The translations under genes were made by a program, and so were the position numbers. The notes beneath the pieces are model-generated. The model did not search any database and had not been told where the DNA came from. It was given only the letters and a program-made list of their open reading frames with translations. A stretch of DNA of 64,000 nucleotides, from positions 1 to 64,000 of the forward strand of contig JACGUK010000005.1 in assembly GCA_024256265.1 (NCBI GenBank), given 5' to 3'. Of this stretch, positions 10,530 through 51,367 are shown piece by piece. The stretch's first letter is position 1; each line of letters starts with the position of its first letter. The DNA is from an archaeon (GTDB taxonomy: Archaea; Thermoproteota; Nitrososphaeria; Nitrososphaerales; JACAEJ01).

Positions 10530-10530
10530 A

Positions 10531-18687: not shown

Positions 18688-18730
18688 TTCAGAATATATT
18701 ATCTAATTCTGTTAATAAGACTTATCGTAC

Positions 18731-18743
18731 TAGAAATATTCTA
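18731..18743 (-). promoter_or_regulatory. 13-bp palindrome TAGAAATATTCTA upstream of beta-helix paralog 1
   Basis: A palindrome of TAGAA and TTCTA arms around a three-base centre lies 43 bases upstream of the ATG at 18687. The same element is at the equivalent place upstream of the other three paralogs and of the S-layer candidate, suggesting a shared regulator binding site upstream of the TATA box. Confidence 0.6.
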
Positions 18744-18746
18744 TAA

Positions 18747-18765
18747 CAAAAAAAATAAAAGGGGG
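18747..18765 (-). terminator. T-tract terminator of second beta-helix gene
   Basis: The minus strand reads CCCCCTTTTATTTTTTTTG shortly after the stop at 18775. It sits directly next to the operator of the following gene. Confidence 0.5.
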
Positions 18766-18774
18766 TTGGTTAGT

Positions 18775-20952
18775 TTATGGTATTATTGCTGTTAGCCAAG
18801 GAATGTAGTCTATGTAGTATGTAGTAGGTGGACCTACAGCTTCTACTGGAGCTATTACTTCATCTCCATGCCCAGGACCTATTCCTCCTGGAGTTACTGG
18901 ACCATCTCCTCCTGGACCATCCATAGCACCCCACCAGTTGTATGTTGCATCTATGGTACTGTCTGCTGCGTTCACATTGACACCAAATTCAACGTTCCAG
19001 TATATGTTGTTATAAGTGATTACTGGTTCTGAATTCACATCAGATATGTATATTCCATCCAAGTAGTTCCTTATTATGAAGTTTCTGTTATCATAGCTAC
19101 CACCTATTATTGGGTCTGAATAATCATAGAGATATATACCGTATACGTTGTTAGCAATGTAGTTCCTTACTATTATTGGGTCTGAACTATAGATGTCGAT
19201 ACCTTCATAGTTGCCTATTATTATGTTATCACTTATTGTAACTAGCTCGTCAGGGCTATCACAATCGTTTATGTATATTCCATACCATTGTCCTGATATT
19301 AGATTGCCATCAGTATGTCCTATTATGTTGTTGGCTATCAATCCAGAGCTATCATAGAATTCTACACCATCATCGTAGTTGTTGTGTATAGTATTGTACT
19401 GTACTGTTATGTCATCACTATCAGAGACATTGATTCCATCTCCTTCAGTAGTAGTTCCATCTGCTCCAGAACCTATTATGGTATTGTGCTCAACTATTAC
19501 ACCATCAGAGTCTTCTATTTCAATGCCATTGTCTGTATTGTATGCTATGGTGTTGTATGCTATTCTTCCTCCTTCCTCACAATACTCCATGTCTATCCCC
19601 TCCTCACCGGAATATGTGTACATTATAGTGTTGTGGATTATCTGTGGGTTCTCAAGATCGTATAGATATACTTCATACTCGTTGCCCAAGACTGTGTTCC
19701 ATTCTATTGTCACTGGAGCATACCAGTACTCTATATACATGCCCTCGTCCTCATTCCCAGTGATAACGTTGCCCTTTATGAGTAGATTCTCACCGTAGCC
19801 TTCTCCATCATTGTATGCATATGCATATATCCCGTCTTCTGCATTCCCTACTATCTTGTTGAATAGGATTGATACATCTGATACGTAATCCTCTAAATAT
19901 ATACCATCATTGTAGTTCCCAATTATTGTATTGTATGCTATGAGTATGGGCATCATCAAGAAATCTTGGTCATCTCCTTCTAGGTATATTGCAGCATCAT
20001 CATTCCCTACTATCTCGTTGTATGTTATTACTACATTCTGTGTGTAATATATCTCCATGCCATAATAGTAGTTGCCCATTATCTTGTTGTAGCTTATAGT
20101 AAGGCTCAGTAATACTTCTGTATCATCTCCACCAACACCATCTGTATCTACAAGTGGCCAATCAGTATCTCCCTCGTAGTAGATTCCATTATCATAGTTT
20201 GCCAGTATCTTGTTGTATGTTATGGATACTACTGGACAGTAGTATAGCTCTATGCCGCTCTCATACGCATTGCTGTATACAAGGTTGGATGCTATGCTCA
20301 CACCGTTCACGTATTCAAGGTATATGTTCTCATTGTAGTTTACTCCTATATCGTTTCCTTTTATCAATATGTTGTGTAGCTCGTTTACTTCAGGAAGCCA
20401 GTCACTATCTACCATCAGATATTCATTGATACCATATATGCCATAATCATTGTTCTTTATGATATTCTCAAGTATCGTTATGCCTGTTGAATCATAGAAT
20501 TCTATTCCTGTATCAGAACTGTAAAGTATTGAGTTCTCCTTTATTATTATCTCATACTTGTCACAGTCATCTATGTATATTCCATCCTCGCTGTTCACTA
20601 TTATGTTATTGTATACAAAACCACTTGCATCATCCTCAAAGTCAAGACCATAATAAGCGTTTGCTATAGTGCACCTCTCTATGTATAGGTATTTACCTGT
20701 GATAACTATCGAATTTCCATCCATGTCTATCATTGCACCATTACCGTATATCCATGTATTCCCTGATATAGTAACATCATCATCAGCATAGTATAGCGTG
20801 TTAGGACTCAGATAAAATGTACCACCAGTACCTCCACCAATTGCATCAGATAACTTCATTGTAGGCTGAGCAATAACTTGAACTGGTATCATTAGAAGCA
20901 TTGGCATCATTAACAGCATTGCTATTACAATCGTTCCTATGATTTTCTTCAT
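18775..20952 (-). CDS. Secreted right-handed beta-helix (NosD/PbH1) protein, paralog 2
   Basis: This 725-residue copy has a signal peptide (ending PVQVIAQPTM), the shared cap GGGTGGTFYLSPNTLYYADD and GNTWIYGNGAM, and PbH1 coils rich in Asp, Glu, Tyr and Asn (for example YNKIMGNYYYGMEIYYTQNV). The C-terminus carries YNWWGAMDGPGGDGP and DYIPWLTAIIP. It is the longest of the four, with an insert (EAVGPPTTYY) before the last motif. The high acidic and Asn content suggests Ca2+ binding along the helix, which is inference. Its promoter region contains a CTTTATAAG TATA box and the shared palindrome. Confidence 0.87.
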   Translation of the reverse strand: MKKIIGTIVIAMLLMMPMLLMIPVQVIAQPTMKLSDAIGGGTGGTFYLSPNTLYYADDDVTISGNTWIYGNGAMIDMDGNSIVITGKYLYIERCTIANAYYGLDFEDDASGFVYNNIIVNSEDGIYIDDCDKYEIIIKENSILYSSDTGIEFYDSTGITILENIIKNNDYGIYGINEYLMVDSDWLPEVNELHNILIKGNDIGVNYNENIYLEYVNGVSIASNLVYSNAYESGIELYYCPVVSITYNKILANYDNGIYYEGDTDWPLVDTDGVGGDDTEVLLSLTISYNKIMGNYYYGMEIYYTQNVVITYNEIVGNDDAAIYLEGDDQDFLMMPILIAYNTIIGNYNDGIYLEDYVSDVSILFNKIVGNAEDGIYAYAYNDGEGYGENLLIKGNVITGNEDEGMYIEYWYAPVTIEWNTVLGNEYEVYLYDLENPQIIHNTIMYTYSGEEGIDMEYCEEGGRIAYNTIAYNTDNGIEIEDSDGVIVEHNTIIGSGADGTTTEGDGINVSDSDDITVQYNTIHNNYDDGVEFYDSSGLIANNIIGHTDGNLISGQWYGIYINDCDSPDELVTISDNIIIGNYEGIDIYSSDPIIVRNYIANNVYGIYLYDYSDPIIGGSYDNRNFIIRNYLDGIYISDVNSEPVITYNNIYWNVEFGVNVNAADSTIDATYNWWGAMDGPGGDGPVTPGGIGPGHGDEVIAPVEAVGPPTTYYIDYIPWLTAIIP

Positions 20953-21000
20953 TTTTCTTCGGCATAGATTATCTAAGTCTACTTATAAAGCTTATTCTAT

Positions 21001-21013
21001 TAGAAATATTCTA
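21001..21013 (-). promoter_or_regulatory. 13-bp palindrome TAGAAATATTCTA upstream of beta-helix paralog 2
   Basis: A perfect arm-matched palindrome 48 bases upstream of the ATG at 20952. Between it and the start lies AAGCTTTATAAGTAGAC, which holds the probable TATA box about 28-38 bases from the ATG. Spacing is the same in paralogs 3 and 4. Confidence 0.65.
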
Positions 21014-21015
21014 GG

Positions 21016-21031
21016 ATAAAAAATAAAAGGG
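21016..21031 (-). terminator. T-tract terminator of third beta-helix gene
   Basis: CCCTTTTATTTTTTAT on the minus strand lies about ten bases after the stop codon at 21041. Confidence 0.5.
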
Positions 21032-21040
21032 TGGATGACT

Positions 21041-23170
21041 TTATGGTATTAGTGCAGTCAGCCAAGGTATGTAATCTATGTAATCTGTTACTTCGTCTCC
21101 ATGTCCGGGTCCTACTCCATCTGGAGTTACTGGTCCTACTCCTCCTGGACCGTCCATAGCACCCCACCAGTTGTACTCTGCATCTATATAGCCATTTTCC
21201 TTGTCATGATCTGTATGAGTTTGAAATACACTGTATACACCATAGTTGACGTTCCAGTATATGTTGTTGTATCTAATTATTGGGTCTGAATCATCACTAT
21301 CTATGTGTATACCATCAGCAAAGTTCCTTATTATGTAGTTTCTGTTATCATAGCTATCACCTATTGTAGCATCTGAATCACCATCAAGCCAAATACCATA
21401 TACATTGTTTGCTATGTAGTTCCTTATTATAGTCGGGTCTGAATCATAGCAGTAGATACCTTCATAGTTGCCTATTATTATGTTATCACTTATAGTAGTT
21501 GTATCAGCAGTGCTTAGGTATATTCCATCATCGTTTCCTGACAATGTGTCCATCCCAGCACCGTAGCCTATTATATTATTTGTTATCAATCCAGAGCTAT
21601 CATACCAATCTATACCATCATCCTCATTGTTGTATATCTTGTTGTACTGTATTGTCATATCGTAACAGTAATCTGCATCTATTCCATCATCGTCTCCACA
21701 GCCTATTATAGTATTGTGCTCTATGATTACATCTTCTATTGGATCTGTTCCGTCACCATCTATATCGATATTCGGATCGTCTGAATTGTATGATATGGTA
21801 TTGTATGCAATCCTTGCTCCATCACAATAACTTATATCTGTCCCGCCGTCATAGTTATACATTATTGTATTATGAATTATCAGTGGGCTCTCAAGATAGT
21901 CTAGTTCTAATCCCTCATACTCATTGCCCAATATAGTGTTCCATTCTATTATCACTGGGGCATCGAAGTCATCTATATCCATACCTTCGTCGAAGTTCTC
22001 ATTCACAATGTTGCCCTTGATGAGCAGTCCTTCGCTACCGTCCTCTCCATCTATGTAGATTCCTTCATCATCATTCCCTACTATCTTGTTGAATAGGATG
22101 GATACATCAGATACGTAGTCCATGTCTATCCCATTCTCCTCGTTCCCTCTTATGGTATTGTATGCTATCAGTACTGGCTCCATCAAGTAATCCCCATCAA
22201 AATCTCCATCGAGGTATATTCCTTCATCGTTATTCCCTGCTATCTCATTGTATGTTATTACTACATTCTGTGTGTAATAAATATCCATGCCCTCATCATC
22301 GTTACCCATTATCTTGTTGTAGCTTATTGTAAGGCTCAATTCTACTTCTACATCAGTTCCATCAACATCTACGATTGGCCAATCATCATCTCCATCGTAG
22401 TATATTGCATCATCATCGTTTGCTAGTATCTTGTTGTTTATTATGGATACTATTGGACAATCATCTAAATCTATGCCATCAGAACTATTTGAAGCTATCA
22501 AGTTAGATGCTATCGATACACCGTTCACATAGTCAAGCTCTATTCCATCATCACCATTTGCTATTATAGTATTTCCCTTTATGATTATGTTATGTAGCTC
22601 GTTTACTTCAGGAAGATAATATGGCGAGTCATACATCAGATCTTCATTGTCTCCATCTATTCCCTCGTCTCCATTGTTGGCTATTGTATTCTCAAGTATA
22701 GTTATGTCTGTTGAATCATCGAAGTATATTCCATCATCATCATTCTGAATTATTGAATTCTCCTTTATTATTATGTCTGAAGAATCCTCAATGTATATTC
22801 CATCATCATTGTTGCCAACTATTATATTATGATATACGAATCCGCTTGCACCATCTAAGAATTCAATAGCACCACTATCAACTGTACCATTTGTAATCGT
22901 GCATCTCTCAATGTATAAGTATTTACCTGTGACAACTATGTTCGATTCTTGTAGGTCTATCATTGCACCATTACCATATATCCATGTATTCCCAGATATA
23001 GCAACTCCACCATAGTAAAGAATGCTTGGACTAAGATAGAATGTACCACCTGTACCTCCACCAACTGCATCAGATAATTTCATAGTGGGCTGTGCAATCA
23101 CTGGTATTGAGACAGTTAATGGCATCATGAGAAGCATTGCTATCGTAATTGTTCCTATGAATTTCTTCAT
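21041..23170 (-). CDS. Secreted right-handed beta-helix (NosD/PbH1) protein, paralog 3
   Basis: The 709-residue protein begins with a signal peptide ending SIPVIAQPTM and the shared cap GGGTGGTFYLSPSILYYGG. Coils such as NNDDGIYIEDSSDIIIKENS recur with a period of about 22-24 residues. Asp and Glu are enriched (runs such as EDDGIDWYDSSG). The C-terminal block has YNWWGAMDGPGGVGP, GPGHGDEVTDY and YIPWLTALIP. It is the closest intact reference for the broken fourth copy. No membrane anchor is present. Confidence 0.88.
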   Translation of the reverse strand: MKKFIGTITIAMLLMMPLTVSIPVIAQPTMKLSDAVGGGTGGTFYLSPSILYYGGVAISGNTWIYGNGAMIDLQESNIVVTGKYLYIERCTITNGTVDSGAIEFLDGASGFVYHNIIVGNNDDGIYIEDSSDIIIKENSIIQNDDDGIYFDDSTDITILENTIANNGDEGIDGDNEDLMYDSPYYLPEVNELHNIIIKGNTIIANGDDGIELDYVNGVSIASNLIASNSSDGIDLDDCPIVSIINNKILANDDDAIYYDGDDDWPIVDVDGTDVEVELSLTISYNKIMGNDDEGMDIYYTQNVVITYNEIAGNNDEGIYLDGDFDGDYLMEPVLIAYNTIRGNEENGIDMDYVSDVSILFNKIVGNDDEGIYIDGEDGSEGLLIKGNIVNENFDEGMDIDDFDAPVIIEWNTILGNEYEGLELDYLESPLIIHNTIMYNYDGGTDISYCDGARIAYNTISYNSDDPNIDIDGDGTDPIEDVIIEHNTIIGCGDDDGIDADYCYDMTIQYNKIYNNEDDGIDWYDSSGLITNNIIGYGAGMDTLSGNDDGIYLSTADTTTISDNIIIGNYEGIYCYDSDPTIIRNYIANNVYGIWLDGDSDATIGDSYDNRNYIIRNFADGIHIDSDDSDPIIRYNNIYWNVNYGVYSVFQTHTDHDKENGYIDAEYNWWGAMDGPGGVGPVTPDGVGPGHGDEVTDYIDYIPWLTALIP

Positions 23171-23218
23171 TTCAGTTCAGCATAGCATATCTAAGTCTAC
23201 TTATAAAGCTTATCCTAT

Positions 23219-23231
23219 TAGAATTGTTCTA
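23219..23231 (-). promoter_or_regulatory. 13-bp palindrome TAGAATTGTTCTA upstream of beta-helix paralog 3
   Basis: Both arms (TAGAA, TTCTA) are kept and only the centre differs from the other copies. It lies 48 bases upstream of the ATG at 23170, with AAGCTTTATAAGTAGAC in between. Confidence 0.63.
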
Positions 23232-23233
23232 TG

Positions 23234-23250
23234 ATAAAAAAATAAAGGGG
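23234..23250 (-). terminator. T-tract terminator of fourth beta-helix gene
   Basis: CCCCTTTATTTTTTTAT on the minus strand lies a few bases after the stop at 23255. Confidence 0.45.
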
Positions 23251-23254
23251 TGGT

Positions 23255-25473
23255 TTACGGTATTGGTGCTGTAAGCCAAGGTATGTAGTCTAATCCAGAA
23301 GTTACTTCATCTCCAGTACCAGGACCTATTCCTCCTGGACCATCCATCTCGCCCCACCAGTTATACTCTGCATTATCATCTGTAGTTGCAGCCCAGTTAT
23401 TTATACCGAATCCAATATTCCAGTATATGTTGTTGTAGTTTATTACAGGGTCTGAAGCATCATCAGCTATGTATACTCCATCAGCATAATTCCTTATTAT
23501 GTAGTTTCTGTTATCTGGAGTACCACCTATTGTTGGGCTTGATGTAGAAGTGAGGTAAATACCATACACGTTGTTTGCTATGTAGTTCCTTACTATAGTC
23601 GGGTCTTCATTAATTAAGAAGATGCTTACGTTGTTGCCAATTATTACGTTATCACTTATCGTGACTGGACTAAAATCATCAATGCTAGTTAAGTTTATTC
23701 CAACATTATTGCCTGATAGTGAACCACTATATCCTATTATGTTGTTTGATATCAAGCCAGAGCAATCTATCCATCTTATCCCTTGATCATTATCTGTTAT
23801 CTTGTTATACTGTACTGTCAAATCTAAGCTTTCTTGAGCTAATATACCATCCACACTACCACCTATTATTGTGTTATGCTCAACTACTACATCATAAGAG
23901 TCAAATATCCCAACTTGGTGACCAACATTGTATGCTATAGTATTGTATGCTATTCTTGCTCCATCACAATAACCAGAAATCACAGTATCATCAATTGCTA
24001 AACCGAGCGTAAGTGCATACCTAAGATCGAGCAAAAATGGTATTCCTAGAGCCCCTAGATCTAACTTAAATCCACGCTGATACATTATAGTGTTATGAAT
24101 TATCTGTGGGCTCTCACAGTCAAATAAGACAATTCCTACCATGTTGTTAGTGACAGTATTCCATTCTATTGTTACTGGAGCATCAAAAGCTATTAGAATC
24201 AATGCAAAGAGCTGGTCTTTCAAGACATTTCCCTTGATAAGTATGTCTTCACTTTGTATACCTTCAATAGGATTTCCAAATATACCTGCGCCTAATATCA
24301 GAACACCTGCAATGTTTCCTTCTATGTTGTTGAAGAGAATCTTTACATCAGATACTCCTATCATGAGTGCTGCCATAGTGTTTCCGCTTATAGTGTTGTA
24401 TGCTACTAATACAGGCTCCATCAAGAAGACTTCTTCATCGAAGTTGCTATATGCTACTGATGCAGATCCAGGCATTATAAATCCTCCGAGAAGGCATAGT
24501 CCAACACCTGAGTTCCCTTCTATCTCATTATATGTTACTACAACATTTTGTGCGAACGCAACGAATATTCCTGCACCGAACTTCATCATAAAAGGATCTA
24601 CTTCATTGAAAAGCATTGTTTCCTCTGGGCTACCTGCTTCCAAAGACAGGAAAGGAAGTAGAGAAATAATCCCTTCTATCAGCTCGCCAATGTCCAGTCC
24701 ATTTCCCATTATCTTGTTGTAGCTTATTGTAAGGCTCAATTCTACTTCTACTTCAGTTGTATCGACAAGTACGATTGGCCAATCAGGATCTCCAAAGTAG
24801 GTGATACCGCCATCTTCGTTTGCCAGTATCTTGTTATGTGTTATGGATACTATAGGACAGCTGATTAGTAATATACCATCGCCTGAATTGCTATGTATCA
24901 AATTAGAAGATATGGATACTCCATTCACAAACTCAAGGGCTATGCCAGGGCCTCCGTTTTCGAATATTTTGTTTGCCTTTATATTTATGTTATGAAGAGC
25001 ATTTGGATCTTCCTCGTACAAAAACCCATTGCCGCCATATATGCCTGGTTTTTCTATTGGTTCTACGTCATTGTTAGCGATGATGTTCTCAAGTATTGTT
25101 ATGTCTGTTGAGTCATAGAATTCTATTCCATACCAAAAATTATGAATTATCGAGTTCTCCTTTATTATTATGTTTGAAGAATCCTTGATGTATATCCCAT
25201 CATCATTGTTTCCAACTATTATGTTATTATAAACGAATCCGCTTGCACCATCTAAGAATTCACACCATTACCATATATCCATGTATTCCCAGATATAGTA
25301 ACTCCTCCTGTATACAGAATGCTAGGATTAAGATAAAATGTACCACCAGTACCTCCTCCAACTGCATCGGATAACTTCATAGTAGGCTGTGCAATAACTT
25401 GAACTGGTATCATAAGAAGAAATGGCGTCATAAGAAGCATTGCTATTGTAATTGTTCCTATGATTTTTCTCAT
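23255..25473 (-). pseudogene. Beta-helix paralog 4, broken by a 100-bp deletion and frameshift
   Basis: The start (25473) encodes the same signal peptide and cap as its neighbours (GGGTGGTFYLNPSILYTGG) up to WIYGNG, then shifts frame and stops at 25252. The rest of the gene continues in another frame to 23255, ending with YNWWGEMDGPGGIGP and LDYIPWLTAPIP. Aligned with paralog 3, bases equivalent to 22866-22965 (100 bp) are missing, with the junction near 25262. The sequence beyond the junction is otherwise open through more than 580 codons, so the deletion looks recent. A protein could still be made from an internal Met (25021) but would lack an export signal. It has more hydrophobic coils (LVAYNTISGNTMAALMIGVS) than the others. 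Confidence 0.85.
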
Positions 25474-44110: not shown

Positions 44111-44222
44111 GCCGGGATTTTAGGAGGAATCTCCTCCAATCCGATGGCAGAGTGGACTAATGCGCGGGCCTTGAGAGCCCGTGACCCTTTGGGTCTCGTG
44201 GGTTCGAATCCCACTCCCGGCG
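44111..44222 (+). tRNA. tRNA-Ser(UGA) with a 27-nt insert near the acceptor/D-arm junction
   Basis: Acceptor GCCGGGA (44111-44117) pairs with TCCCGGC (44215-44221) with discriminator G. The D-arm is GCAGAGTGGACTAATGC, the anticodon stem CGGGC/GCCCG encloses CTTGAGA with anticodon TGA, the variable arm is long (class II, serine type), and GTGGGTTCGAATCCCAC is the T-arm. Between acceptor and D-arm 27 extra bases occur, with a GGAGG/CCTCC hairpin and flanking GGAT/ATCC pairing, which resembles a bulge-helix-bulge intron though the splice points do not fit canonically. Its 3' part is repeated at 51268-51330 as attachment site. CCA is not encoded. Confidence 0.75.
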
Positions 44223-44423
44223 TTCAAAAAGGTTAATCTTTTCTCCAATAAAGGTTAACTTATCCTCTATTGAGGTTAACCTGCTCTCAAGCTCATTTAG
44301 ATCGACTTTGCCCTCTATGACGGCCCTTAAGAATTGGCCTAATGTCTCATGTCCTTTGGTTTGTAGGATTCGGTTTAAGGCTATAAGATCGTTCTCGGTT
44401 AGCTTTGCTCCTATGGTTGGCAT
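44157..44423 (-). pseudogene. Integrase N-terminal part, int(N)
   Basis: The 88-codon frame begins MPTIGAKLTENDLIALNRIL and continues with a helical, coiled-coil-like stretch (ESRLTSIEDKLTFIGEKIN), then reads through the att/tRNA antisense (REWDSNPRDPKGHGLSRP) before stopping in the tRNA D-arm. In the circular form the frame passes from 44166 to 51267 without interruption and yields an integrase of about 356 residues. The first 50 residues could fold as a ribbon-helix-helix or oligomerisation domain. On its own it lacks any catalytic residue. It is the last gene of a three-gene minus-strand operon. Confidence 0.8.
44166..44228. repeat. attL: 63-bp direct repeat in tRNA-Ser 3' half
   Basis: The stretch from the anticodon stem through the tRNA 3' end plus six bases is identical to 51268-51330. 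It lies inside the integrase reading frame, so recombination between the copies excises a circle of 7,102 bp and restores the integrase. Confidence 0.88.
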
Positions 44424-44425
44424 GG

Positions 44426-44659
44426 TTAGCAGTCCGCCTCAATTGCGTAAATCTTTAAAACTTCCTCTGGATCGACTTCTTGGGTAGGATCAGAAGTTAC
44501 CTCTTCGGCATGATCTTTCAGAAAATTAACGATCATGTCCTCTATGAAAGCTCTCACATCATAATAAGCCTTTGTCCATAAGTTGAAGTTCTCGTAGAAT
44601 TTATAGAGGTTCTTAGGAATGTTAATGGTTATTTTAATTTCTAGCTCCTGCTCACTCAT
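44426..44659 (-). CDS. Small protein, possible ribbon-helix-helix
   Basis: This 77-residue protein starts SEQELEIKITINIPKNLYKF, a beta strand followed by a helix as in RHH DNA-binding proteins, then RAFIEDMIVNFLKDHAEE and an acidic tail. It lies between the zinc-ribbon gene and int(N) with two-base spacing to the latter, so it could regulate integrase expression. The RHH call is tentative. Confidence 0.5.
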   Translation of the reverse strand: MSEQELEIKITINIPKNLYKFYENFNLWTKAYYDVRAFIEDMIVNFLKDHAEEVTSDPTQEVDPEEVLKIYAIEADC

Positions 44660-44663
44660 TCTC

Positions 44664-44789
44664 TTATTTCACCTCCTCCCCACAGAAGAGGCATTTTGCA
44701 GCGTGGGCATACAGAAGGGCTGGGGCTTTATCAGCTATGAATACCAGCCCTAAGCTTGTTTTACATCTTGGGCATTCTATTTTGCTCAT
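44664..44789 (-). CDS. 41-residue zinc-ribbon protein
   Basis: From an ATG at 44789 the minus strand encodes MSKIECPRCKTSLGLVF, a short helix, and KCLFCGEEVK, then TAA. The CPRC and CLFC pairs form a complete zinc ribbon. It starts the small operon that ends with int(N); only five bases separate it from the next start. Tiny zinc ribbons are common in archaeal viruses and plasmids. Role unknown. Confidence 0.7.
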   Translation of the reverse strand: MSKIECPRCKTSLGLVFIADKAPALLYAHAAKCLFCGEEVK

Positions 44790-45195
44790 CTTCTTACCTC
44801 GACAAAAATAAATTTTGTTTCGCTTCAATTTCAGAAGCTCATCAAGAGGCTTAAGTTTCCGCTTGTTGATAGGGGAACTAGGCTGCCCAAGTTTGGGTAA
44901 TCGCCTGCGGAACCCGTTTGCTTATGTCAGCCGAACGGTTTATTTTTACCGTTGCTTAGAGCGTTTTGCTCTTGGCTCCATTTATCATAATGCTATTAGA
45001 ACGATTAGTATTTAACATTTTAGCCTTTTCTGAGAATAATTCGTTTATGTAAATTTTGCATTAATAGAACGATTAGCCCTAATAATCTTAAAAGGATTAT
45101 TAAATATTCATTCCTTCTTAACTCTAGCATATTTAAACTAATATAAATTTTAATAAGATAACATTAATATACCTACTAATCATGTAACGTAATTC
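44790..45195. other. Noncoding region of the element with repeats (possible origin/control region)
   Basis: Between the divergent zinc-ribbon and AbrB genes no gene is seen. The stretch has two exact copies of TAGAACGATTAG (44997-45008 and 45065-45076), an inverted repeat TAATAATC/GATTATTA around 45080-45102, a hairpin AACGGT/ACCGTT at 44934-44953, and a very AT-rich tail towards AbrB. These fit a replication origin or a divergent regulatory region. No experimental parallel can be named. Confidence 0.45.
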
Positions 45196-45363
45196 ATGGA
45201 TGTAGTAAAACTACAGCTGTCTGGATCGGGACCTAGAACCCAATACCGAGTTACAATACCAAAGGAATTAATCCAAGAACTTGGCTGGCAAAGGGGCATA
45301 GCCCTTTCAGTTGAGAAAAAGAATGGTTATATCGTTATTAGAGCAATGAAGGCTGAAGGATAA
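45196..45363 (+). CDS. AbrB/SpoVT-type DNA-binding protein
   Basis: A 55-codon frame from an ATG at 45196 encodes LQLSGSGPRTQYRVTIPKEL and LGWQRGIALSVEKKNGYIVI, the swapped-hairpin AbrB fold (VTIPKEL...LGWxxG). AbrB proteins dimerise and bind AT-rich DNA. It faces a 400-bp noncoding region and is followed by composite operator A, so it is a candidate regulator of the element. Confidence 0.75.
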   Translation: MDVVKLQLSGSGPRTQYRVTIPKELIQELGWQRGIALSVEKKNGYIVIRAMKAEG

Positions 45364-45390
45364 GGTATTTCTACAGAATAGGCCCTTTAA

Positions 45391-45420
45391 GGCTGTATGG
45401 CTGTATGACGTCTATACAAT
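45391..45420 (+). promoter_or_regulatory. Composite operator, copy A
   Basis: Four pentamers spaced 8 bp apart: GCTGT, GCTGT, ACGTC, ACAAT with three-base gaps. It resembles copies B and C (ATTGT-N3-GCTGT-N3-ACAGC-N3-ACAAT) but has two changed pentamers. It lies at the 3' end of the winged-helix gene and after AbrB. Confidence 0.45.
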
Positions 45421-45897
45421 TATCTCATCTTTCAATGGCCCAAATTCCATTGGCCGCAACATATAGACCTTTCTTTTTGGGTTCCATCTAGCATAAGTTC
45501 TAGCATGAAGCTTTAAAACATCATTCGCTTCCTTTCTTGTTAGCTTTCTTACTTTTGTCTTAGCCATTTTTCGGATTTCTTCAAATTTCTTTTGAATCTC
45601 CGGGTTTATAATTGGGTGTGAAACCCCCCTTAATTGTGAGCCACTAAAATAAAGTATCATGGTCTCTGAATCAATCAACTTATCAGGCTCATACCAGCCC
45701 CTTCTTAAAATAATTATGCCTTCTTTTAAGAGATTCTGCAGCTGTGTATAAAAAGTTGAACGTGAAAGCTTCTTTAACGCATCCGTGGCTTCGAATAATT
45801 CTCCAAAAGTTAAAGGTTGTAGTTTTAAAAGAGCTAATATGATAACTCTTTGTGTTTCTTCTCTCTCCTTTTGCTGCCTCTCACCTAAACCTCTCAA
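45412..45897 (-). CDS. Winged-helix transcription regulator
   Basis: The 161-residue protein begins with a polar Arg/Glu/Gln helix and then has RVIILALLKLQPLTFGELFE, LKKLSRSTFYTQLQNLLKEG and IILRRGWYEPDKL, a winged-helix fold of the kind used by many archaeal virus regulators. The C-terminal half (about 100-161) is basic and helical. It is transcribed towards operator A, against the structural-like genes. Confidence 0.7.
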   Translation of the reverse strand: MRGLGERQQKEREETQRVIILALLKLQPLTFGELFEATDALKKLSRSTFYTQLQNLLKEGIIILRRGWYEPDKLIDSETMILYFSGSQLRGVSHPIINPEIQKKFEEIRKMAKTKVRKLTRKEANDVLKLHARTYARWNPKRKVYMLRPMEFGPLKDEIIV

Positions 45898-45935
45898 TGA
45901 ACCCCCGAACTAAATTATTAGAACTGATATATAAA

Positions 45936-45954
45936 TCTTATAATTATTATAAGA
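45936..45954. promoter_or_regulatory. 19-bp perfect palindrome TCTTATAATTATTATAAGA
   Basis: The palindrome ends four bases before the ATG at 45958 and overlaps the promoter/start region of the downstream gene, between two divergent genes. The short gene it precedes looks like a VapB/RHH-type protein, so autoregulation is plausible. Confidence 0.5.
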
Positions 45955-45957
45955 ATC

Positions 45958-46116
45958 ATGAGCACGACTATAGCCATAAGTGAAGAGACGAAAAAAAGAC
46001 TTATGGAGTTAGGCCGTAAAGGAGATACCTTCGACCATATTATATCGGTACTCTTGACCAAAGCGAAGCTCTTAGATAAAATTGAGGAGAATCAGAAGGC
46101 TTTGGGGGTAGCTTAA
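45958..46116 (+). CDS. VapB/RHH-antitoxin-like small protein
   Basis: A 52-codon frame encodes STTIAISEETKKRLMELGRK then GDTFDHIISVLLTKAKLLDK. The pattern TIAISEETKxxLxxLGxxGDTFDxII is common in archaeal VapB-like/DUF7557 proteins. No toxin gene is next to it; the following gene starts two bases later. It may act purely as a regulator in the element. Confidence 0.7.
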   Translation: MSTTIAISEETKKRLMELGRKGDTFDHIISVLLTKAKLLDKIEENQKALGVA

Positions 46117-46118
46117 AC

Positions 46119-46337
46119 ATGGATCCAGAAATATTAAACCGAGGCATATCTCGAATACAAACTGTTGGGGAAGCAAGTACAGACCTGGAAAAGAACATTC
46201 AAGAATATAATGTTCATGTCAAAAGGCTTTTTGATCTAAATGTTGAGATTCTGAAGTCAATAAATGTTATCGTTACAAATCTTAGCCTTTTCCTAGGTGA
46301 TTTAGAAGCCCTAAGTAAAGAGGGAGAGAAAATATGA
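46119..46337 (+). CDS. Small helical protein of the element
   Basis: The 72-residue protein is amphipathic and helical: LNRGISRIQTVGEASTDLEK, KRLFDLNVEILKSINVIVTN, FLGDLEALSKEG. No known family. The start of the tape-measure-like gene overlaps its end by four bases, so the two are translationally coupled and may form a complex. Confidence 0.6.
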   Translation: MDPEILNRGISRIQTVGEASTDLEKNIQEYNVHVKRLFDLNVEILKSINVIVTNLSLFLGDLEALSKEGEKI

Positions 46338-47683
46338 GTAGCGTAGAACTAATTGCTAAGTTAAAGGCTGTAGATGAAGCCTCAGATAAGATAAAACAAA
46401 TAGGTGATAAGACAGAAGAGGCGATGAAGAAGGTTGAGGATAGCACAAAGAAGGCCGACTTTAGCTTTAAGCAGTTTACAATCTCAGTATCAGGAGTTAT
46501 GACAGCGGGCTTCAATCTCTATAATATGTATAATAGAGTGACTGATGCTCAAAGGAACGTTGAAAAGGCTCAATACTCTCTAAAGCAAGCACAAGATGCA
46601 GCAAAGGGATCCCAAGACGCTTATACCAACGCTGTAAATAGGTTCGGAACAGATTCACCTCAAGCAGTGACAGCTTTAGATAATTTGAAAGATGCACAAG
46701 AAAAGGTGAGGTTAAAGTCTGAAGAACTAAAGGATAAGCAAGATAGAGTTACTGAGAGCATGGTCTATTGCTTTGTAACTCTAGGCCCAACGATTATAAC
46801 AGGGATAAAGAACATGAAAGACGCTATAACTGAACTGAACGCTACTCTTGGTGTTTCTGGGCTGGCCGGTGCAGCAAGTACTGCGGGAACAGCTCTGGCA
46901 GCAATAGCAACTGTACTAGCTGGCGGTGCAATGATATATGGTGCGTATGTAGATTCTCAAAATGAAGTTTCAATGGCGTTTAAGCAGATGGGTGTTTATT
47001 GTAAGGGTGGTCAATTAGCCCTAAAGCTATATCATGAAGAATTAAATCAACTTAATCAAGACGTTATACAGCTACAGCAAGCAGAAACCATAATGGAAGG
47101 GGCAGCCTTATCAATGGATGAGCTATCTCTCACTTTAACAGATTTGGCTTTAAGCAACGAGCAAGTACAGACAGCAAGTCAGGAGACTATAACTGCCCTT
47201 ACAGGTGTGGATGAAGCTCTTGGTGCTTTATCGGGCTCAGTTGGATCAATGTCAGGAGCCTTCGGTGAGGCTTTTGCTTCTATATCAGGCATGATAAACG
47301 AATGGGCAAGTACTACAAAGGCTGCTATTGATGATGTAGTTGGTGCTTTTGAGAGTGCAAGTCAAGAGATAGCCGGAGGCTCGATATGGCCAGATATGTG
47401 GGCTGATATTCTATCACAAACTAAAAAAGGCATGAGAGAGAACATAAGAGAATTGGATAGGGGTTTGGATAAAGTAGAGGATATGCTCTCAAGACCTATG
47501 TATATGGACTTTAGAATCAATATCGATGTTTCTGGCTTAAGAGCACAAATTGCAAATATGATTAAGAGTATGCTTAAGAGCGTAACTATAGAGAAGACAT
47601 CAGCACAGGCTACTACTTCAAGGATAAGAGTGCCTACAACTACTACAACAACTACACCACGGAGCCCAATTCTTGGAAGGTGA
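46334..47683 (+). CDS. Tape-measure-like coiled-coil and membrane-active protein
   Basis: The 449-residue protein starts with a coiled-coil region (AKLKAVDEASDKIKQIGDKT) as in tail tape-measure proteins, continues with long Gln/Ala-rich helices (NVEKAQYSLKQAQDAAKGSQ), then two hydrophobic segments (about 145-160 and 175-206; AAIATVLAGGAMIYGAYVDS), more helices, and a Thr-rich C-terminus (TTTTTTTPRSP). Tape-measure proteins and related spindle-virus proteins show such segments, but no other tail gene occurs in the element. It might be a virion or conjugation/transfer protein. Family assignment is inference. Confidence 0.6.
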   Translation: MSSVELIAKLKAVDEASDKIKQIGDKTEEAMKKVEDSTKKADFSFKQFTISVSGVMTAGFNLYNMYNRVTDAQRNVEKAQYSLKQAQDAAKGSQDAYTNAVNRFGTDSPQAVTALDNLKDAQEKVRLKSEELKDKQDRVTESMVYCFVTLGPTIITGIKNMKDAITELNATLGVSGLAGAASTAGTALAAIATVLAGGAMIYGAYVDSQNEVSMAFKQMGVYCKGGQLALKLYHEELNQLNQDVIQLQQAETIMEGAALSMDELSLTLTDLALSNEQVQTASQETITALTGVDEALGALSGSVGSMSGAFGEAFASISGMINEWASTTKAAIDDVVGAFESASQEIAGGSIWPDMWADILSQTKKGMRENIRELDRGLDKVEDMLSRPMYMDFRINIDVSGLRAQIANMIKSMLKSVTIEKTSAQATTSRIRVPTTTTTTTPRSPILGR

Positions 47684-47688
47684 TATAG

Positions 47689-48459
47689 ATGAACATTGAA
47701 GATTATGTAAGAGTAACGAAGATTGAAAGCGGATCCCTACAAATTCCTAGGCCAGAGAAATTTAGTTTTCCATGTCCAACTTGTAAAAATAACATAGATG
47801 TTAAGGGAAAAATAAAATTCCTTCTGAGAGATGATCTAGAGGCTGTAGAAAATACACTCAAGCGGGCCGAAGAAATGGAAAAATTCTATGATGACGTCAA
47901 ATCAAGCCGCCTTGATTTAATTAGTTATTTCAGACGGCTAAGAGAAATGACAGCTAAATATTCACAAGTACCCCTCATAGGCTGGGTTGTAGATGCTCAT
48001 AACTTTTTGAACGAAAGATGCTCTCAGTGCGGACTTGGCCTCACAATACATTATAATTTCAAATTCACGCCGCCACTAGTACCAACTCCAAAAGTTGGTG
48101 AGATAGCGGCCCTCGAATTGAAAGATGAATACACACAACATTACGTAAGGCGACAACTTGACTTTAAAACCTGGCCAGAGGTAGAGAATTGGCTCTCTGG
48201 TGCAGATACTTATTCCCTAATTCAGAAACTAAAAGAAATTTCTGCTATATTAGAGACGCTTGATTATTTTAGACACCCTCACACCGATCTGAGTCTTTTA
48301 GAGTTGTCAGTGGGCAGCCTCAAGGCGTTCTCAAATAGTATTAGAGACCTAATTAACAGCTTTGAGCAAGAAGTTCAGAGCAGACCGAAAATTTTCTTAA
48401 ATCTTGTAGAGGAATATTCTCATGAAGCAGCCCCAAAAAGCCCCATGCAATCCCTATGA
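47689..48459 (+). CDS. Zinc-binding protein of the element, unrecognised
   Basis: The 256-residue protein has two cysteine pairs 80 residues apart: FPCPTCKNNIDVKGKI (about 28-43) and ERCSQCGLGLTIHYNF (about 109-124), which together could form a split zinc ribbon. Between and after them lie long helices (LEAVENTLKRAEEMEKFYDD; LIQKLKEISAILETLDYF). It starts six bases after the tape-measure-like gene. Its 3' end overlaps the next gene by 38 bases. Confidence 0.6.
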   Translation: MNIEDYVRVTKIESGSLQIPRPEKFSFPCPTCKNNIDVKGKIKFLLRDDLEAVENTLKRAEEMEKFYDDVKSSRLDLISYFRRLREMTAKYSQVPLIGWVVDAHNFLNERCSQCGLGLTIHYNFKFTPPLVPTPKVGEIAALELKDEYTQHYVRRQLDFKTWPEVENWLSGADTYSLIQKLKEISAILETLDYFRHPHTDLSLLELSVGSLKAFSNSIRDLINSFEQEVQSRPKIFLNLVEEYSHEAAPKSPMQSL

Positions 48460-48892
48460 GAGAGGGGAGGAGAATTTTCACACGAAGACAGGACCCGAGA
48501 CCGCCTCACCGCCTCATCCCCTCCCCCTCAAAGTAGAAATTCCTTTAAAAATTTATAAAAGGCTGAAAGAAGTACGAAGGCTGCTAAAGGAAGAAGGGAT
48601 AAACCCCGTACCGTCAATTCATGATATAGGAACGTCTCTCCTATTGGATTTTCTCAATTGGCCAAAGATTAAGCAAGATGAGTTTATCAAAGAGATAAAA
48701 GAGAAGCCTAACATAGTTGAAATTGACTATGAGATTCATAAGAAGTTGAGGCAGGTACAAAAAGAGCTAAAAGATGAGGGTGTAAACCCGCCCTCAACCG
48801 ATCAAATAGTCAATACAGCATTAAAGGCCTTCTTTTCTCTGCCTAAGTTTAATCAAATAGAGATTATTGAGGAAATGAAGCATGAGCCTTGA
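48422..48892 (+). CDS. Protein with a duplicated ~50-residue domain
   Basis: The 156-residue protein holds two similar units: VEIPLKIYKRLKEVRRLLKE plus GINPVPSIHDIG (about 37-75) and VEIDYEIHKKLRQVQKELKD plus GVNPPSTDQIVN (about 99-137), each ending in a hydrophobic helix and a WPK/LPK turn. The pattern (strand, helix, PS-DI-helix) looks RHH-like with two units in one chain, which could make a pseudo-dimeric DNA binder. The start ATG lies within the previous gene; a later start is not obvious. Confidence 0.55.
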   Translation: MKQPQKAPCNPYERGEENFHTKTGPETASPPHPLPLKVEIPLKIYKRLKEVRRLLKEEGINPVPSIHDIGTSLLLDFLNWPKIKQDEFIKEIKEKPNIVEIDYEIHKKLRQVQKELKDEGVNPPSTDQIVNTALKAFFSLPKFNQIEIIEEMKHEP

Positions 48893-49259
48893 AGACTTTA
48901 TCCCTAGAGTAAAGAAGAGAGGAACAGGCTGCCATTATGCTCATAAAATTAAGAAACTAGGACAGCTGAGGCTGCTAATCTTAAAAGTCTTAAGTCAGTA
49001 TGAGAATCGCTGGCTAAGGAATAAAGATGTTACAGTTAGAGTTAACAAATCAAGAAGGCAGGATAATAAGAGAAATATTACTTCAGGAACTACTTCAGGG
49101 CGCCTTTCTGAACTTTTAGGCTTGAGGCTGGTAAAGATGAGCGAGGGTATTGTACAAGTTTATGATGAGGATGAGATGAGCTTCATTTATACGAAAGAAC
49201 CATGCTGGAAGATCACAGAGACCGGTGAGCGTGCCTTAGAGGCTGCTAAGCATGAATAA
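48882..49259 (+). CDS. Winged-helix protein of the element
   Basis: The 125-residue protein has a basic N-terminus (RVKKRGTGCHYAHKIKKLGQ), then a winged-helix region (LRLLILKVLSQYENRWLRNK, SGTTSGRLSELLGLRLVKMS) with a wing ending in CWKITETGERALEAAK. It overlaps the preceding gene by 11 bases, consistent with a joint transcript from 45958 to here. Likely DNA-binding. Confidence 0.6.
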   Translation: MSLEDFIPRVKKRGTGCHYAHKIKKLGQLRLLILKVLSQYENRWLRNKDVTVRVNKSRRQDNKRNITSGTTSGRLSELLGLRLVKMSEGIVQVYDEDEMSFIYTKEPCWKITETGERALEAAKHE

Positions 49260-49328
49260 ATTAACCAAGCCATGCAGGAAAATCTCATCAAATCAGATTG
49301 ACTTACCATTAGTTTTTTTGACATATAC

Positions 49329-49358
49329 CATTGTAGGACTGTAGGACAGCATGACAAT
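49329..49358 (+). promoter_or_regulatory. Composite operator, copy B
   Basis: It contains ATTGT-N3-ACTGT-N3-ACAGC-N3-ACAAT. The 20 bases CTGTAGGACAGCATGACAAT are exactly repeated in inverted orientation at 50009-50028. It lies 35 bases upstream of the GTG start at 49394, in promoter position. Confidence 0.65.
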
Positions 49359-49393
49359 TTAGGTGATAAAGACTGCCTCTAAAACGCTATAGC

Positions 49394-50005
49394 GTGAGAT
49401 TAACTGAAGATCAGGTCTCTTTCCTTTCAAAGACTGATAATGCTTCAGCCCTGCTACGCCGCCTTATAGATCAAGAGAGGTTAAGATCGGCTGTAGAAGA
49501 TAGCTCTAATAAGAAAATTCTGGCTAACGCTAAAATTGAAGAACTAGATGAAAAGATCAAGTTCTTAAAGAAGAAAATGGATGAGGTTGAAGGTCAGCTA
49601 AAGAATCAGATAGAATTGAGAGAATTTTATGGAGAATGTTCAGAATTTCTTAATAAAGCGAAAGAAAAAGGGATGGATTATGCTAAACATTTATCTTTAA
49701 AACATGCTGGAATTAGGGCTGCTCGCATATATAGTACTAAACATGATGAAGTTGAAAAATGGGAGGTAAAGGTCTATCAAGAGAAGAGAGAAATGGGGGT
49801 TTGGAGAGAGCCAGAAGATTATATTTCTTTTAAGGGCTCTGAAAAGGAATGCTTAGATCAAGTTGAAAAATGGGTAAATGAGAATCTTGCCCCGATCTCT
49901 CAAGAAGAATTAAGGTTTAAGAAGGCATGTGAAGCATTAGAAGAGGAGATTAAAGTATTAGAGGATAAGAAGGCTGCCATGGTTAAGGAATTTCTTCAGA
50001 TGTAG
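49394..50005 (+). CDS. Coiled-coil protein bracketed by inverted operators
   Basis: The 203-residue protein has a long charged coiled coil (ILANAKIEELDEKIKFLKKK, about 34-75), a central globular part (AKHLSLKHAGIRAARIYSTK; KWEVKVYQEKREMGVWREPE), and a second coil at the end (ALEEEIKVLEDKKAAMVKEF). Start is GTG. It has its own promoter region with operator B and a mirrored copy C right after its stop. No family recognised; as it is separately controlled it might be a partition, replication or maintenance factor. Confidence 0.6.
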   Translation: MRLTEDQVSFLSKTDNASALLRRLIDQERLRSAVEDSSNKKILANAKIEELDEKIKFLKKKMDEVEGQLKNQIELREFYGECSEFLNKAKEKGMDYAKHLSLKHAGIRAARIYSTKHDEVEKWEVKVYQEKREMGVWREPEDYISFKGSEKECLDQVEKWVNENLAPISQEELRFKKACEALEEEIKVLEDKKAAMVKEFLQM

Positions 50006-50008
50006 AAT

Positions 50009-50038
50009 ATTGTCATGCTGTCCTACAGCCATACAATC
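50009..50038 (-). promoter_or_regulatory. Composite operator, copy C (inverted)
   Basis: On the minus strand it is a perfect dyad: ATTGT-N3-GCTGT-N3-ACAGC-N3-ACAAT. It begins four bases after the stop of the coiled-coil gene and faces opposite to copy B. It could act as a binding site, as a boundary, or as an RNA hairpin at the end of the transcript. Confidence 0.62.
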
Positions 50039-50454
50039 AATAACAGATAATCCCATAAAATATCTCCAGAGCCTCCAGCCCTTTATTATGAGAGCGATCA
50101 TGGATACTTTTTAACAAAGCCTCCAGCAAGCGTAAACCCTCCAACTATAAACTATCCAGCCAGCACAAACTATCCATTTTGGTCTGCTCCTTTGCTAAAA
50201 AATAAAAAAATTTAATGTGTTTTTCAATAATTTTTAAACTCAACACAACCTAACATTAAATCTCCTTTGTTATTATTGAGATAGTTGTTATTCTTCTTGA
50301 TTTAATGACAGGGTTTGTAATTCTTTCCCTCAATCTCATGACCTTGCACACATACAAACTTAGCCCTCTTAATTACTTAACTCCCATGACGCTGGTACTT
50401 CTATCCTTACTAGATACTCCTACCCTTACATGACAAAAAAATAAGGTGAGAGGG
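50039..50454. other. Noncoding region upstream of integrase end, pyrimidine-rich with short repeats
   Basis: About 416 bases without a recognisable gene on either strand. It contains AGCCTCCAGC twice (near 50055-50068 and 50119-50132), AAACTATCCA twice (near 50145-50180), and a long A/T block (50199-50250). It is a second candidate site for replication or packaging signals in the element. Confidence 0.35.
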
Positions 50455-51252
50455 CTAGGATAGAACCTTGAGCCCCGTCTGGCTATATACTTTGGCAGCC
50501 TCTTCTGCATCCCTAAGCTCATAATGATCGTATAATACATCTCTTAATATATGCCCCGTTAGAACTAATCTCCATTCTCTTGGCATGCTTCTCTTTCTTG
50601 TTTCGTTAAGGAACCAATCTCTGAGCATGTAAGGATACATATGGATCCCACTCTTTTTGCTGGCTATTTGGAAGTCCTTATTGAGAACCCTTTTACTATA
50701 AGGATATACTCTATCTTCTTGCAGAAGATTATGCTCTTTTATCCAAGATAGAACTTCACTATTTACACAGGCCAGCCAAGAACGCTTTATTTCATTTTGA
50801 TGTATTCGGCTGAGATTTATAATTCCAACCTCTTCATAGACTTTAATATCCATAACTCTTAGAGGGAGCATTTCTATAGGTCTCATGCCACTACTCGCAA
50901 GAATAAGGAAGGCTATCTTGGTTCTTTCTGGCAATTCGTGATAGAAGATTGTAATTTGCTCATTAGAGGGGAGGAAGATAGGATTCGGCATTGGCTTCGG
51001 TATTTCAATTATGGTCTCTATTTCATCATATCCAAGAAACCTTAGAAGGTGCCTGGCAACCTTCGCTATATTTCCTCTAGTATTAGGGTTCTTTACAGCC
51101 TTAAGAGTTTGATTAATATCTTTTGGGGTGAAAGACTCTGGAAGAATGGCCATGAGCATGTTAAGTTTGTATCCGTAATTGATAGCTGTATTCTCGCTTA
51201 CTTCCCCTTTAAGATAGTCTATGAATTTCTCTCTTTGGGGTTCGACTATCAT
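50455..51252 (-). CDS. int: Tyrosine integrase, C-terminal catalytic part, int(C)
   Basis: A tyrosine recombinase with a SAM-like core-binding domain (EPQREKFIDYLKGEVSENTA) and catalytic residues Arg in SSGMRPIEMLPL, Arg in MYPYMLRDWFLNE, His in LTGHILRD and nucleophile Tyr in LYDHYE. The usual HxxR box has Tyr in place of the first His. The frame stays open from 51252 through attR to 51348 (antisense of the tRNA), and in the circular form continues into int(N). The Met at 51252 is the first start inside the integrated element, giving 265 residues. Similar in size and layout to SSV-type integrases. Confidence 0.88.
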   Translation of the reverse strand: MIVEPQREKFIDYLKGEVSENTAINYGYKLNMLMAILPESFTPKDINQTLKAVKNPNTRGNIAKVARHLLRFLGYDEIETIIEIPKPMPNPIFLPSNEQITIFYHELPERTKIAFLILASSGMRPIEMLPLRVMDIKVYEEVGIINLSRIHQNEIKRSWLACVNSEVLSWIKEHNLLQEDRVYPYSKRVLNKDFQIASKKSGIHMYPYMLRDWFLNETRKRSMPREWRLVLTGHILRDVLYDHYELRDAEEAAKVYSQTGLKVLS

Positions 51253-51267
51253 TTTACTTATGAGTAA

Positions 51268-51330
51268 GGGCCTTGAGAGCCCGTGACCCTTTGGGTCTCG
51301 TGGGTTCGAATCCCACTCCCGGCGTTCAAA
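51268..51330. repeat. attR: 63-bp direct repeat of tRNA-Ser 3' half
   Basis: Identical to 44166-44228 and separated from it by 7,102 bp. It contains the anticodon arm, variable arm, T-arm and acceptor 3' strand of tRNA-Ser but no 5' half, so it is not a functional tRNA gene. Confidence 0.88.
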
Positions 51331-51367
51331 TTTAAGGTCAAATCTCAAGCACTCTTTAAAATTGAGA

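What the first reader, a model, noticed from the sequence alone, without database searches (positions are those of the whole stretch)
44166..51330. SSV-type integrated element whose integrase gene is split by integration into tRNA-Ser(UGA)
A 63-bp identical direct repeat (44166-44228 and 51268-51330) consists of the 3' half of a tRNA-Ser gene. Both copies are traversed on the minus strand by open frames that share the peptide WDSNPRDPKGHGLSRP. The frame of the left part (44423 down) and that of the right part (to 50455) are in register when 44166 is joined to 51267, giving an integrase of about 356 residues with all catalytic residues. That is the defining feature of SSV-type integration of archaeal viruses and plasmids. 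Finding this type in a methanogenic TACK-like genome would be a new host range if confirmed.
Basis: partly seen in the sequence, partly recalled or inferred. Interest (0 to 1): 0.88.

Follow-up and report, generated by a model that had tools for sequence, protein, structure and literature searches.

The report
Self-splitting integrase element in methanogen
A 7-kb mobile element has inserted into a serine tRNA gene of a methane-producing archaeon with a recombinase whose own gene is cut in two by the insertion; the trick is known from other archaea, but the element oddly carries a lone tail-length gene of a tailed virus.

Summary
A perfect 63-bp direct repeat (44166-44228, 51268-51330) is the 3' part of tRNA-Ser(UGA); the left copy lies in the complete gene (44111-44222). 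Int(N) (44157-44423, minus) and Int(C) (50455-51348, minus) read it in one frame: codon 86 of Int(N) ends at 44166, codon 28 of Int(C) begins at 51267. Int(C) is a tyrosine recombinase by profile, alignment and predicted fold. In 5 of 7 genomes of the host family this tRNA stands beside pyrD with one repeat-like stretch and no integrase nearby. Four further genomes of the class show both halves of a split integrase at the two copies of a tRNA repeat, so the self-splitting mode is real and recurs. The host is nearest to Ca. Methylarchaceae (Nitrososphaeria). 'New host range' is only a family-level gain: a split SSV1-like integrase is in print for a Nitrososphaerota element, and suicidal integrases for Methanosarcinales. 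The extra find is cargo: a full-length homologue of tail tape-measure proteins, with no recognised capsid, portal, terminase or replication gene, which suggests a satellite, a plasmid with a captured gene, or a remnant.

The parts
44111..44222 (+). tRNA-Ser(UGA), complete, with a probable 27-nt non-canonical intron at 44118-44144; attL side
   Evidence: Rfam core 44143-44216; ends and intron by comparison with L149 and by eye
44166..44228 (+). left copy of the 63-bp att repeat
51268..51330 (+). right copy of the 63-bp att repeat (3' part of the tRNA only)
44157..44423 (-). Int(N), 88 aa, N-terminal part of the split integrase
   Evidence: homologue beside the repeat of G155, 41% over 66 aa
50455..51348 (-). 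Int(C), 297 aa with the tRNA-encoded stretch, 265 aa from the ATG at 51252; catalytic part
   Evidence: phrog_1 1.2e-12; fold model pLDDT 86, best PDB match archaeal Xer
44426..44659 (-). ORF of 77 aa, unknown
44664..44828 (-). ORF of 54 aa with two CxxC pairs (by eye)
45196..45363 (+). AbrB/MazE-type DNA-binding protein, 55 aa
   Evidence: PF04014 8.2e-6, above cut-off
45412..45897 (-). winged-helix regulator, 161 aa; also a sub-threshold match to F-93_WHD
   Evidence: PF01022 1.5e-4 at its cut-off; PF22194 4.3e-4, 20.7 of 28 bits
45958..46116 (+). ORF of 52 aa; not scanned against any family library
46119..46337 (+). ORF of 72 aa overlapping the start of the tape-measure gene
46334..47683 (+). 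tail tape-measure homologue, 449 aa
   Evidence: phrog_9228 2.6e-6; P0071 46% over 94%; G263 38% over 381 aa
47689..48459 (+). ORF of 256 aa with two CxxC pairs (by eye), no relative found in 380 genomes
48422..48892 (+). ORF of 156 aa, possibly two ribbon-helix-helix units (by eye), no relative found in 380 genomes
48882..49259 (+). ORF of 125 aa, possibly winged helix (by eye)
49394..50005 (+). ORF of 203 aa, coiled coil by eye
49330..50037 (.). 29-bp inverted repeat 49330-49358 / 50009-50037 round the 203-aa ORF

Best explanation
An integrated mobile element of 7,102 bp that uses SSV-type (type I, suicidal) integration. In the free circle the att site lies inside the integrase gene as a copy of the 3' part of tRNA-Ser(UGA). 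The integrase recombines it with the host's tRNA gene; the host keeps a whole tRNA at the Int(N) end and the integrase gene is left as Int(N) and Int(C). Excision then needs an intact integrase from another element. Shown: anatomy, register, uninterrupted tRNA in relatives, the same split in four further genomes. Inferred: the circle, enzyme activity, the crossover point (in or near the anticodon arm), dependence on a second integrase. What the element is beyond that is open: small DNA-binding proteins, one tape-measure protein and no recognised replication or capsid gene fit a small plasmid or a satellite that borrows from a tailed virus.
For: Perfect 63-bp repeat made of tRNA; both ORFs read it in one frame. 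Int(C) is a tyrosine recombinase. In 5 of 7 genomes of the family of G002, tRNA-Ser(UGA) stands beside pyrD with one repeat-like stretch and no match to Int(C) or the tape-measure protein in the 12-20 kb fetched; the other two, G200 and G280, were not examined at this site. The repeat search on 11 loci gave 4 with a tRNA repeat next to the integrase, and in all 4 the other copy is read in the same frame by a second ORF: G155, G200, G262, G278. G155's Int(N) is homologous to the window's. Unsplit relatives of 350-383 aa with what looks by eye like a tRNA-encoded peptide inside one frame exist (P0004, P0007, P0016, P0021).
Against: No empty site with both flanks conserved: the right flank (HypA to McrB) lies beside this tRNA in none of the five relatives. 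Int(C) is divergent (22-31% identity to relatives other than P0002), scores below the cut-offs of PF00589 (26.1 of 27.1 bits) and PF16795 (16.2 of 27). P0002, 82% identical, seems to read its tRNA in another frame. Only one clear homologue of Int(N) was found. The repeat search found no tRNA repeat in 7 of the 11 loci, and none in the stretches fetched round the two integrases of G004. GC is the same in element and host (0.386; 0.388 and 0.392), so composition gives no sign of foreign DNA.
Confidence: 0.93

Rival explanations
1. Satellite of a tailed virus: integrates by its own self-splitting integrase and supplies its own tape-measure protein when a helper virus builds tails, so that helper virions carry it. 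A refinement of the best explanation, not an alternative to the integration mode.
For: Tape-measure homologue of full length (449 aa; P0071 452) with an open frame and no other virion gene recognised; tailed-virus genes with a related tape measure occur in two genomes of the host family (G263, G001); no replication gene recognised.
Against: No helper, no packaging site and no second element with the same cargo found; the neighbouring ORFs of 256 and 156 aa had no match in 380 genomes each; none of the four other split elements shares the tape measure.
Confidence: 0.25
2. Plasmid-like integrative element that captured a tape-measure gene, whose product now does something else (for example a membrane or coiled-coil role).
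For: Small regulators, operon-like overlap of ORFs, lack of all other virion genes; cryptic integrated elements with only an integrase in common are usual in Thaumarchaeota (PMC6563490 passage).
Against: No plasmid replication gene recognised; similarity to tape measures includes the C-terminal part, so the whole protein is kept.
Confidence: 0.35
3. Remnant of a tailed provirus that lost most genes and is now immobile.
For: Tape-measure gene is a tailed-virus gene; a self-split integrase cannot excise alone; GC equals the host's.
Against: Both att copies are identical over 63 bp, the ORFs are open and tightly packed from 45958 to 50005, and no fragment of another virion gene was recognised (12 of 13 ORFs scanned).
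Confidence: 0.2
4. Not an insertion: tRNA duplication or assembly error that placed two unrelated integrase pieces at two repeats.
For: Right flank is not conserved in relatives; P0002 reads the tRNA in another frame.
Against: Same frame on both sides, homologous Int(N) beside a repeat in G155, same anatomy in four genomes.
Confidence: 0.03

Closest known systems
SSV1 and other fusellovirus integrases (type I / suicidal)
   Same: att inside the integrase gene, tRNA target, split into Int(N) and Int(C); the SSV1 record marks its integration site inside ORF D-335
   Different: SSV1, SSVK1 and pXZ1 fall on another branch of the tree; no fusellovirus structural gene recognised
pT26-2 / pGE2 integrases of Thermococcales plasmids
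   Same: Suicidal (Badel 2021); by eye a ribbon-helix-helix-like N-terminus and a tRNA-type peptide before the catalytic part (letters)
   Different: Branch with SSV, not with the window; hosts are Thermococcales; plasmids of 21.6 and 24.0 kb
NitEve-E3 (Krupovic 2019, PMC6563490)
   Same: SSV1-like integrase split on integration, Thaumarchaeota (passage)
   Different: Encodes MCM (same passage); its sequence was not compared here
Split-integrase elements in G155, G200, G262, G278 (found here)
   Same: Direct tRNA repeats of 58, 37, 45 and 47 bp with 5.1, 7.7, 6.7 and 5.0 kb spacing, both halves in one frame
   Different: Other cargo: only Int(C) and, for G155, Int(N) are shared; G278 uses the 5' part of its tRNA, as published for pTN3-like integrases
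Tail tape-measure proteins (Nitrososphaera Pro-Nvie1; provirus piece in G263)
   Same: Homologous to the 449-aa protein (22% over 34% of it; 38% over 381 aa)
   Different: There the gene lies among other tail genes; here it stands alone

Membership tests
SSV-type (type I, suicidal) integrated element | att site lies inside the integrase reading frame | tested here: met
   Int(N) and Int(C) read the 63-bp repeat in one frame
SSV-type (type I, suicidal) integrated element | int(N) and int(C) at the two ends, no intact integrase on the element | tested here: met
   no other integrase among the ORFs scanned (12 of 13)
SSV-type (type I, suicidal) integrated element | target is a tRNA gene that is kept whole | tested here: met
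SSV-type (type I, suicidal) integrated element | tyrosine recombinase catalytic residues in Int(C) | tested here: met
   R156, K188, R243, H266, Y276 by alignment; fold
SSV-type (type I, suicidal) integrated element | Phage_integr_3 (PF16795), named for suicidal integrases by Badel 2021 | tested here: inconclusive
   window 16.2 bits, cut-off 27; above cut-off in 7 of 8 other integrases scanned, P0002 has no match listed
SSV-type (type I, suicidal) integrated element | one clade with SSV and pT26-2 integrases | tested here: inconclusive
   free tree: window, P0002 and G175 on a branch of their own; AU tests reject neither one clade of all 29 rows labelled self-splitting (p 0.217) nor the window branch with the SSV group (p 0.362)
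SSV-type (type I, suicidal) integrated element | circular free form; active integrase | not testable with these tools
   needs reads, cells or protein
Fuselloviridae | fusellovirus structural genes | tested here: not met
   none recognised with Pfam or PHROGs (12 of 13 ORFs by one or both); a sub-threshold match of the 161-aa regulator to F-93_WHD is the only hint; Int(C) has no match in 50,697 phage records at 1e-5
Caudoviricetes provirus | terminase, portal, major capsid and tail genes | tested here: not met
   only a tape-measure homologue
virus satellite | mobilised by a helper virus | not testable with these tools
   function; no helper identified

The most novel reading that the evidence does not exclude
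The element is a satellite of tailed viruses of methanogenic Nitrososphaeria that combines a self-splitting integrase with a stand-alone tape-measure protein by which it could set the tail length of a helper's virions; and its integrase belongs to a lineage in which self-splitting is widespread and may have arisen, or been lost again in non-split relatives, apart from the SSV/pT26-2 event.
Probability: 0.18. Interest if true: 0.75.

Novelty: new member of a known kind. Interest (0 to 1): 0.5.

Why it matters
It brings self-splitting integration to Ca. Methylarchaceae, methanogens for which I found no mobile element in print, and shows four more cases in the class. Badel 2021 derives suicidal integrases from a single event (passage); the new members, with non-split integrases of class members among them in the free tree, make that testable on a larger set, though my tests do not reject one origin. 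A lone tape-measure gene on a 7-kb element points to a satellite or gene-capture route in uncultivated methanogens.

Tried and rejected
Fusellovirus: rejected, no structural gene recognised. Classical type II element with intact integrase: rejected, no other integrase among the ORFs scanned. Independent origin of self-splitting: considered, not supported: AU p 0.113 for one clade of the 24 rows labelled split, 0.217 for all 29. Left out of the tree: L126 and L145 (broken frames), L130 and L142 (partial).

Nothing found: Int(C) in phages, in viral contigs alone or in alignments and in genome contigs; plasmids gave one weak match, pNOB8 (E 6e-3). The 256-aa and 156-aa ORFs had no match in 380 genomes each (the tool warns that an empty answer without a positive control shows nothing); the 203-aa ORF none in viral contigs. 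The Int(N) model is of low confidence (pLDDT 55.7). In G004 and G280 no second repeat copy in the stretches fetched. Class and order searches drew 380-400 genomes from larger groups.
Full report
What is there. The window has a 63-bp perfect direct repeat at 44166-44228 and 51268-51330. It is the 3' part of tRNA-Ser(UGA) plus six bases; Rfam finds the tRNA at 44143-44216. The anticodon TGA is read by eye. The complete gene is 44111-44222 if GCCGGGA at 44111-44117 is its 5' acceptor strand; 27 nt, 44118-44144, then stand between acceptor and D arm. In G272 (L149) the same gene runs GCCGGGATGGCAG without them, so they are most likely a non-canonical intron, which would also explain why ARAGORN misses the gene. 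They lie outside the repeat.

The split integrase. On the minus strand Int(N) (44423 to 44157, 88 aa) runs through the left repeat, and Int(C) (51348 to 50455, 297 aa) opens outside the right repeat and runs through it. Both use the same frame of the repeat: 86 codons from 44423 to 44166, 27 codons from 51348 to 51268. The implied free-form protein has 86 + 270 = 356 residues; unsplit relatives P0004, P0007, P0016 and P0021 have 350-383. Int(C) matches integrase profiles (phrog_1 1.2e-12; PF00589 8.2e-6, one bit under its cut-off). Its model (pLDDT 86) best matches an archaeal Xer recombinase in the PDB (E 6.5e-8). R156, K188, R243, H266 and Y276 align with conserved positions, with R instead of H at 266 in most relatives. 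The tRNA-encoded residues 1-24 have pLDDT under 50.

Int(N). It has no Pfam match. It is homologous to an ORF of G155 (41% over 66 aa, E 4e-8 in a small local set) that stands beside the second tRNA repeat of that genome's own element. The Int(N) of G262 matches the antitoxin family CcdA (PF07362, 6.6e-7, above cut-off), and P0004, P0007, P0021 and P0044 carry PF07362 before the catalytic domains. CcdA is a ribbon-helix-helix protein (recalled). The window's Int(N) may be such a domain: helices at 10-22 and 28-36 would fit, but the model is poor (pLDDT 55.7).

Other cases. Int(C) matched 16 of 400 genomes drawn from the class of HK01M at 1e-10, and alignment A6 matched 20 of 400 drawn from its order at 1e-20. 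I fetched larger stretches for 20 places and ran the repeat search on 10 of them and on L143: 4 of 11 had a tRNA repeat next to the integrase, namely G200 (37 bp, 7.7 kb), G278 (47 bp, 5.0 kb), G262 (45 bp, 6.7 kb) and G155 (58 bp, 5.1 kb). Rfam confirms a tRNA at one copy in all four. In all four the other copy is read in the same frame by a second ORF. In G278 the repeat is the 5' part of the tRNA and the whole tRNA lies on the Int(C) side, as published for pTN3-like integrases. G200 is in the same family as HK01M. In the other 7 loci no tRNA repeat was found; some of these contigs are short. Nine integrases of unnamed class members show no tRNA-type peptide (letters, by eye).

Empty sites. 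In G001 (H03B2), G002 (HK01M), G263, G272 and G273, five of the seven genomes of the family, tRNA-Ser(UGA) stands beside pyrD and pyrK, as on the window's left side, with one stretch similar to the repeat and no match to Int(C) or the tape-measure protein in the 12-20 kb fetched; the window's right flank is beside it in none. So the tRNA is otherwise uninterrupted, but no relative gives a clean two-sided empty site.

Host. McrA is 88% identical to that of archaeon H03B2 and 86% to Ca. Methylarchaceae HK01M, which NCBI places in Nitrososphaeria and PMC9478090 (passages) in the order Ca. Methylarchaeales. No whole genome is held for the window.

Cargo. Between the integrase parts lie eleven plausible ORFs. 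Recognised: an AbrB/MazE-type protein (PF04014), a winged-helix protein (PF01022, with a sub-threshold match to F-93_WHD), and a 449-aa tape-measure homologue; the 52-aa ORF was not scanned. The tape measure is related to P0071 (46% over 94%), to a 374-aa protein of G263 beside neck (phrog_5, 5e-22), possible terminator (3e-3) and tail (3e-6) genes, to a piece in G001 beside a terminase (phrog_2, 4e-41), and weakly to the annotated tape-measure protein of Nitrososphaera Pro-Nvie1 (22% over 34%). Relatives occur in 13 of 400 genomes of the order at 1e-6 and on 10 IMG/VR contigs. In the window it stands alone: no terminase, portal, capsid, neck, baseplate or replication gene was recognised. It is as long as its homologues and its frame is open. 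I weigh a satellite (0.25), a plasmid with a captured gene (0.35) and a remnant (0.2); nothing here decides. Of papers that hold all four of 'satellite', 'archaeal virus', 'tape measure' and 'integrase' there are 4 (listing only); none has a title on such an element.

Place among known integrases. Free tree of 41 rows, 294 columns: window, P0002 and G175 form one branch (89/93); the other split and tRNA-peptide rows form, with nine non-split ones, a group (96/94); SSV and pT26-2 types form a third (90/89). AU tests reject neither one clade of the 24 rows labelled split (p 0.113), nor of all 29 (p 0.217), nor the window branch with the SSV group (p 0.362). The data are compatible with the published single origin and do not prove it.

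Print. PMC6563490 (one passage): NitEve-E3 has an SSV1-like integrase split on integration. PMC8371274 (passages, abstract, section 18): definition, hosts, att lengths usually of 40-50 bp for suicidal integrases, single-origin view, 5'-half targets of pTN3-like integrases. No paper holds both 'Methylarchaeales' and 'provirus'; 3 hold 'Methylarchaeales', and the main one, PMC9478090, has none of 'virus', 'plasmid', 'mobile genetic', 'integrase' in its main text. The other two were not read. The library lacks most subscription journals.

Verdict. Observation confirmed; interpretation right in mechanism, overstated in host range. New member of a known kind, with unusual cargo worth following.

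Noticed in passing
window 44118-44144; L147, L148, L149, L109, L110: tRNA-Ser(UGA) has a probable 27-nt intron after position 7. In relatives the gene seems to have none (G272), one in the D-arm region (G263), or two, one of 13 nt in the anticodon loop (G001, G002, G273). Intron positions in one tRNA vary within a family.
   Followed up: partly
window 49330-49358 and 50009-50037: 29-bp inverted repeat round the 203-aa ORF; a 19-bp core occurs twice without mismatch (0.03 expected). Could be operators, an origin or ends of a small cassette.
   Followed up: partly
P0002; window 51268-51330: An integrase 82% identical to Int(C) starts with a peptide (GVGFEPTRPKRVTGSQGP) that looks like this tRNA read in another frame. 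The variable arm of the tRNA differs by one or two bases between hosts, so host tRNA changes may force frame changes in the integrase.
   Followed up: no
window 16615-25021: Row of four long minus-strand proteins with beta-helix-like repeats (by eye).
   Followed up: no
L128 (G278) 5461-5507 and 10460-10535: Split integrase whose att is the 5' part of a tRNA-Pro gene, the pTN3-like arrangement, in the order of HK01M.
   Followed up: partly
L137, L138 (G004, genome of L005, Ca. Methanomethylicus oleisabuli V3): Integrase C-terminal parts whose frames run out of intact tRNA-Gly and tRNA-Glu genes in the sense direction; no second repeat copy in the stretches fetched. Hints at self-splitting integrases in Methanomethylicia too.
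   Followed up: partly
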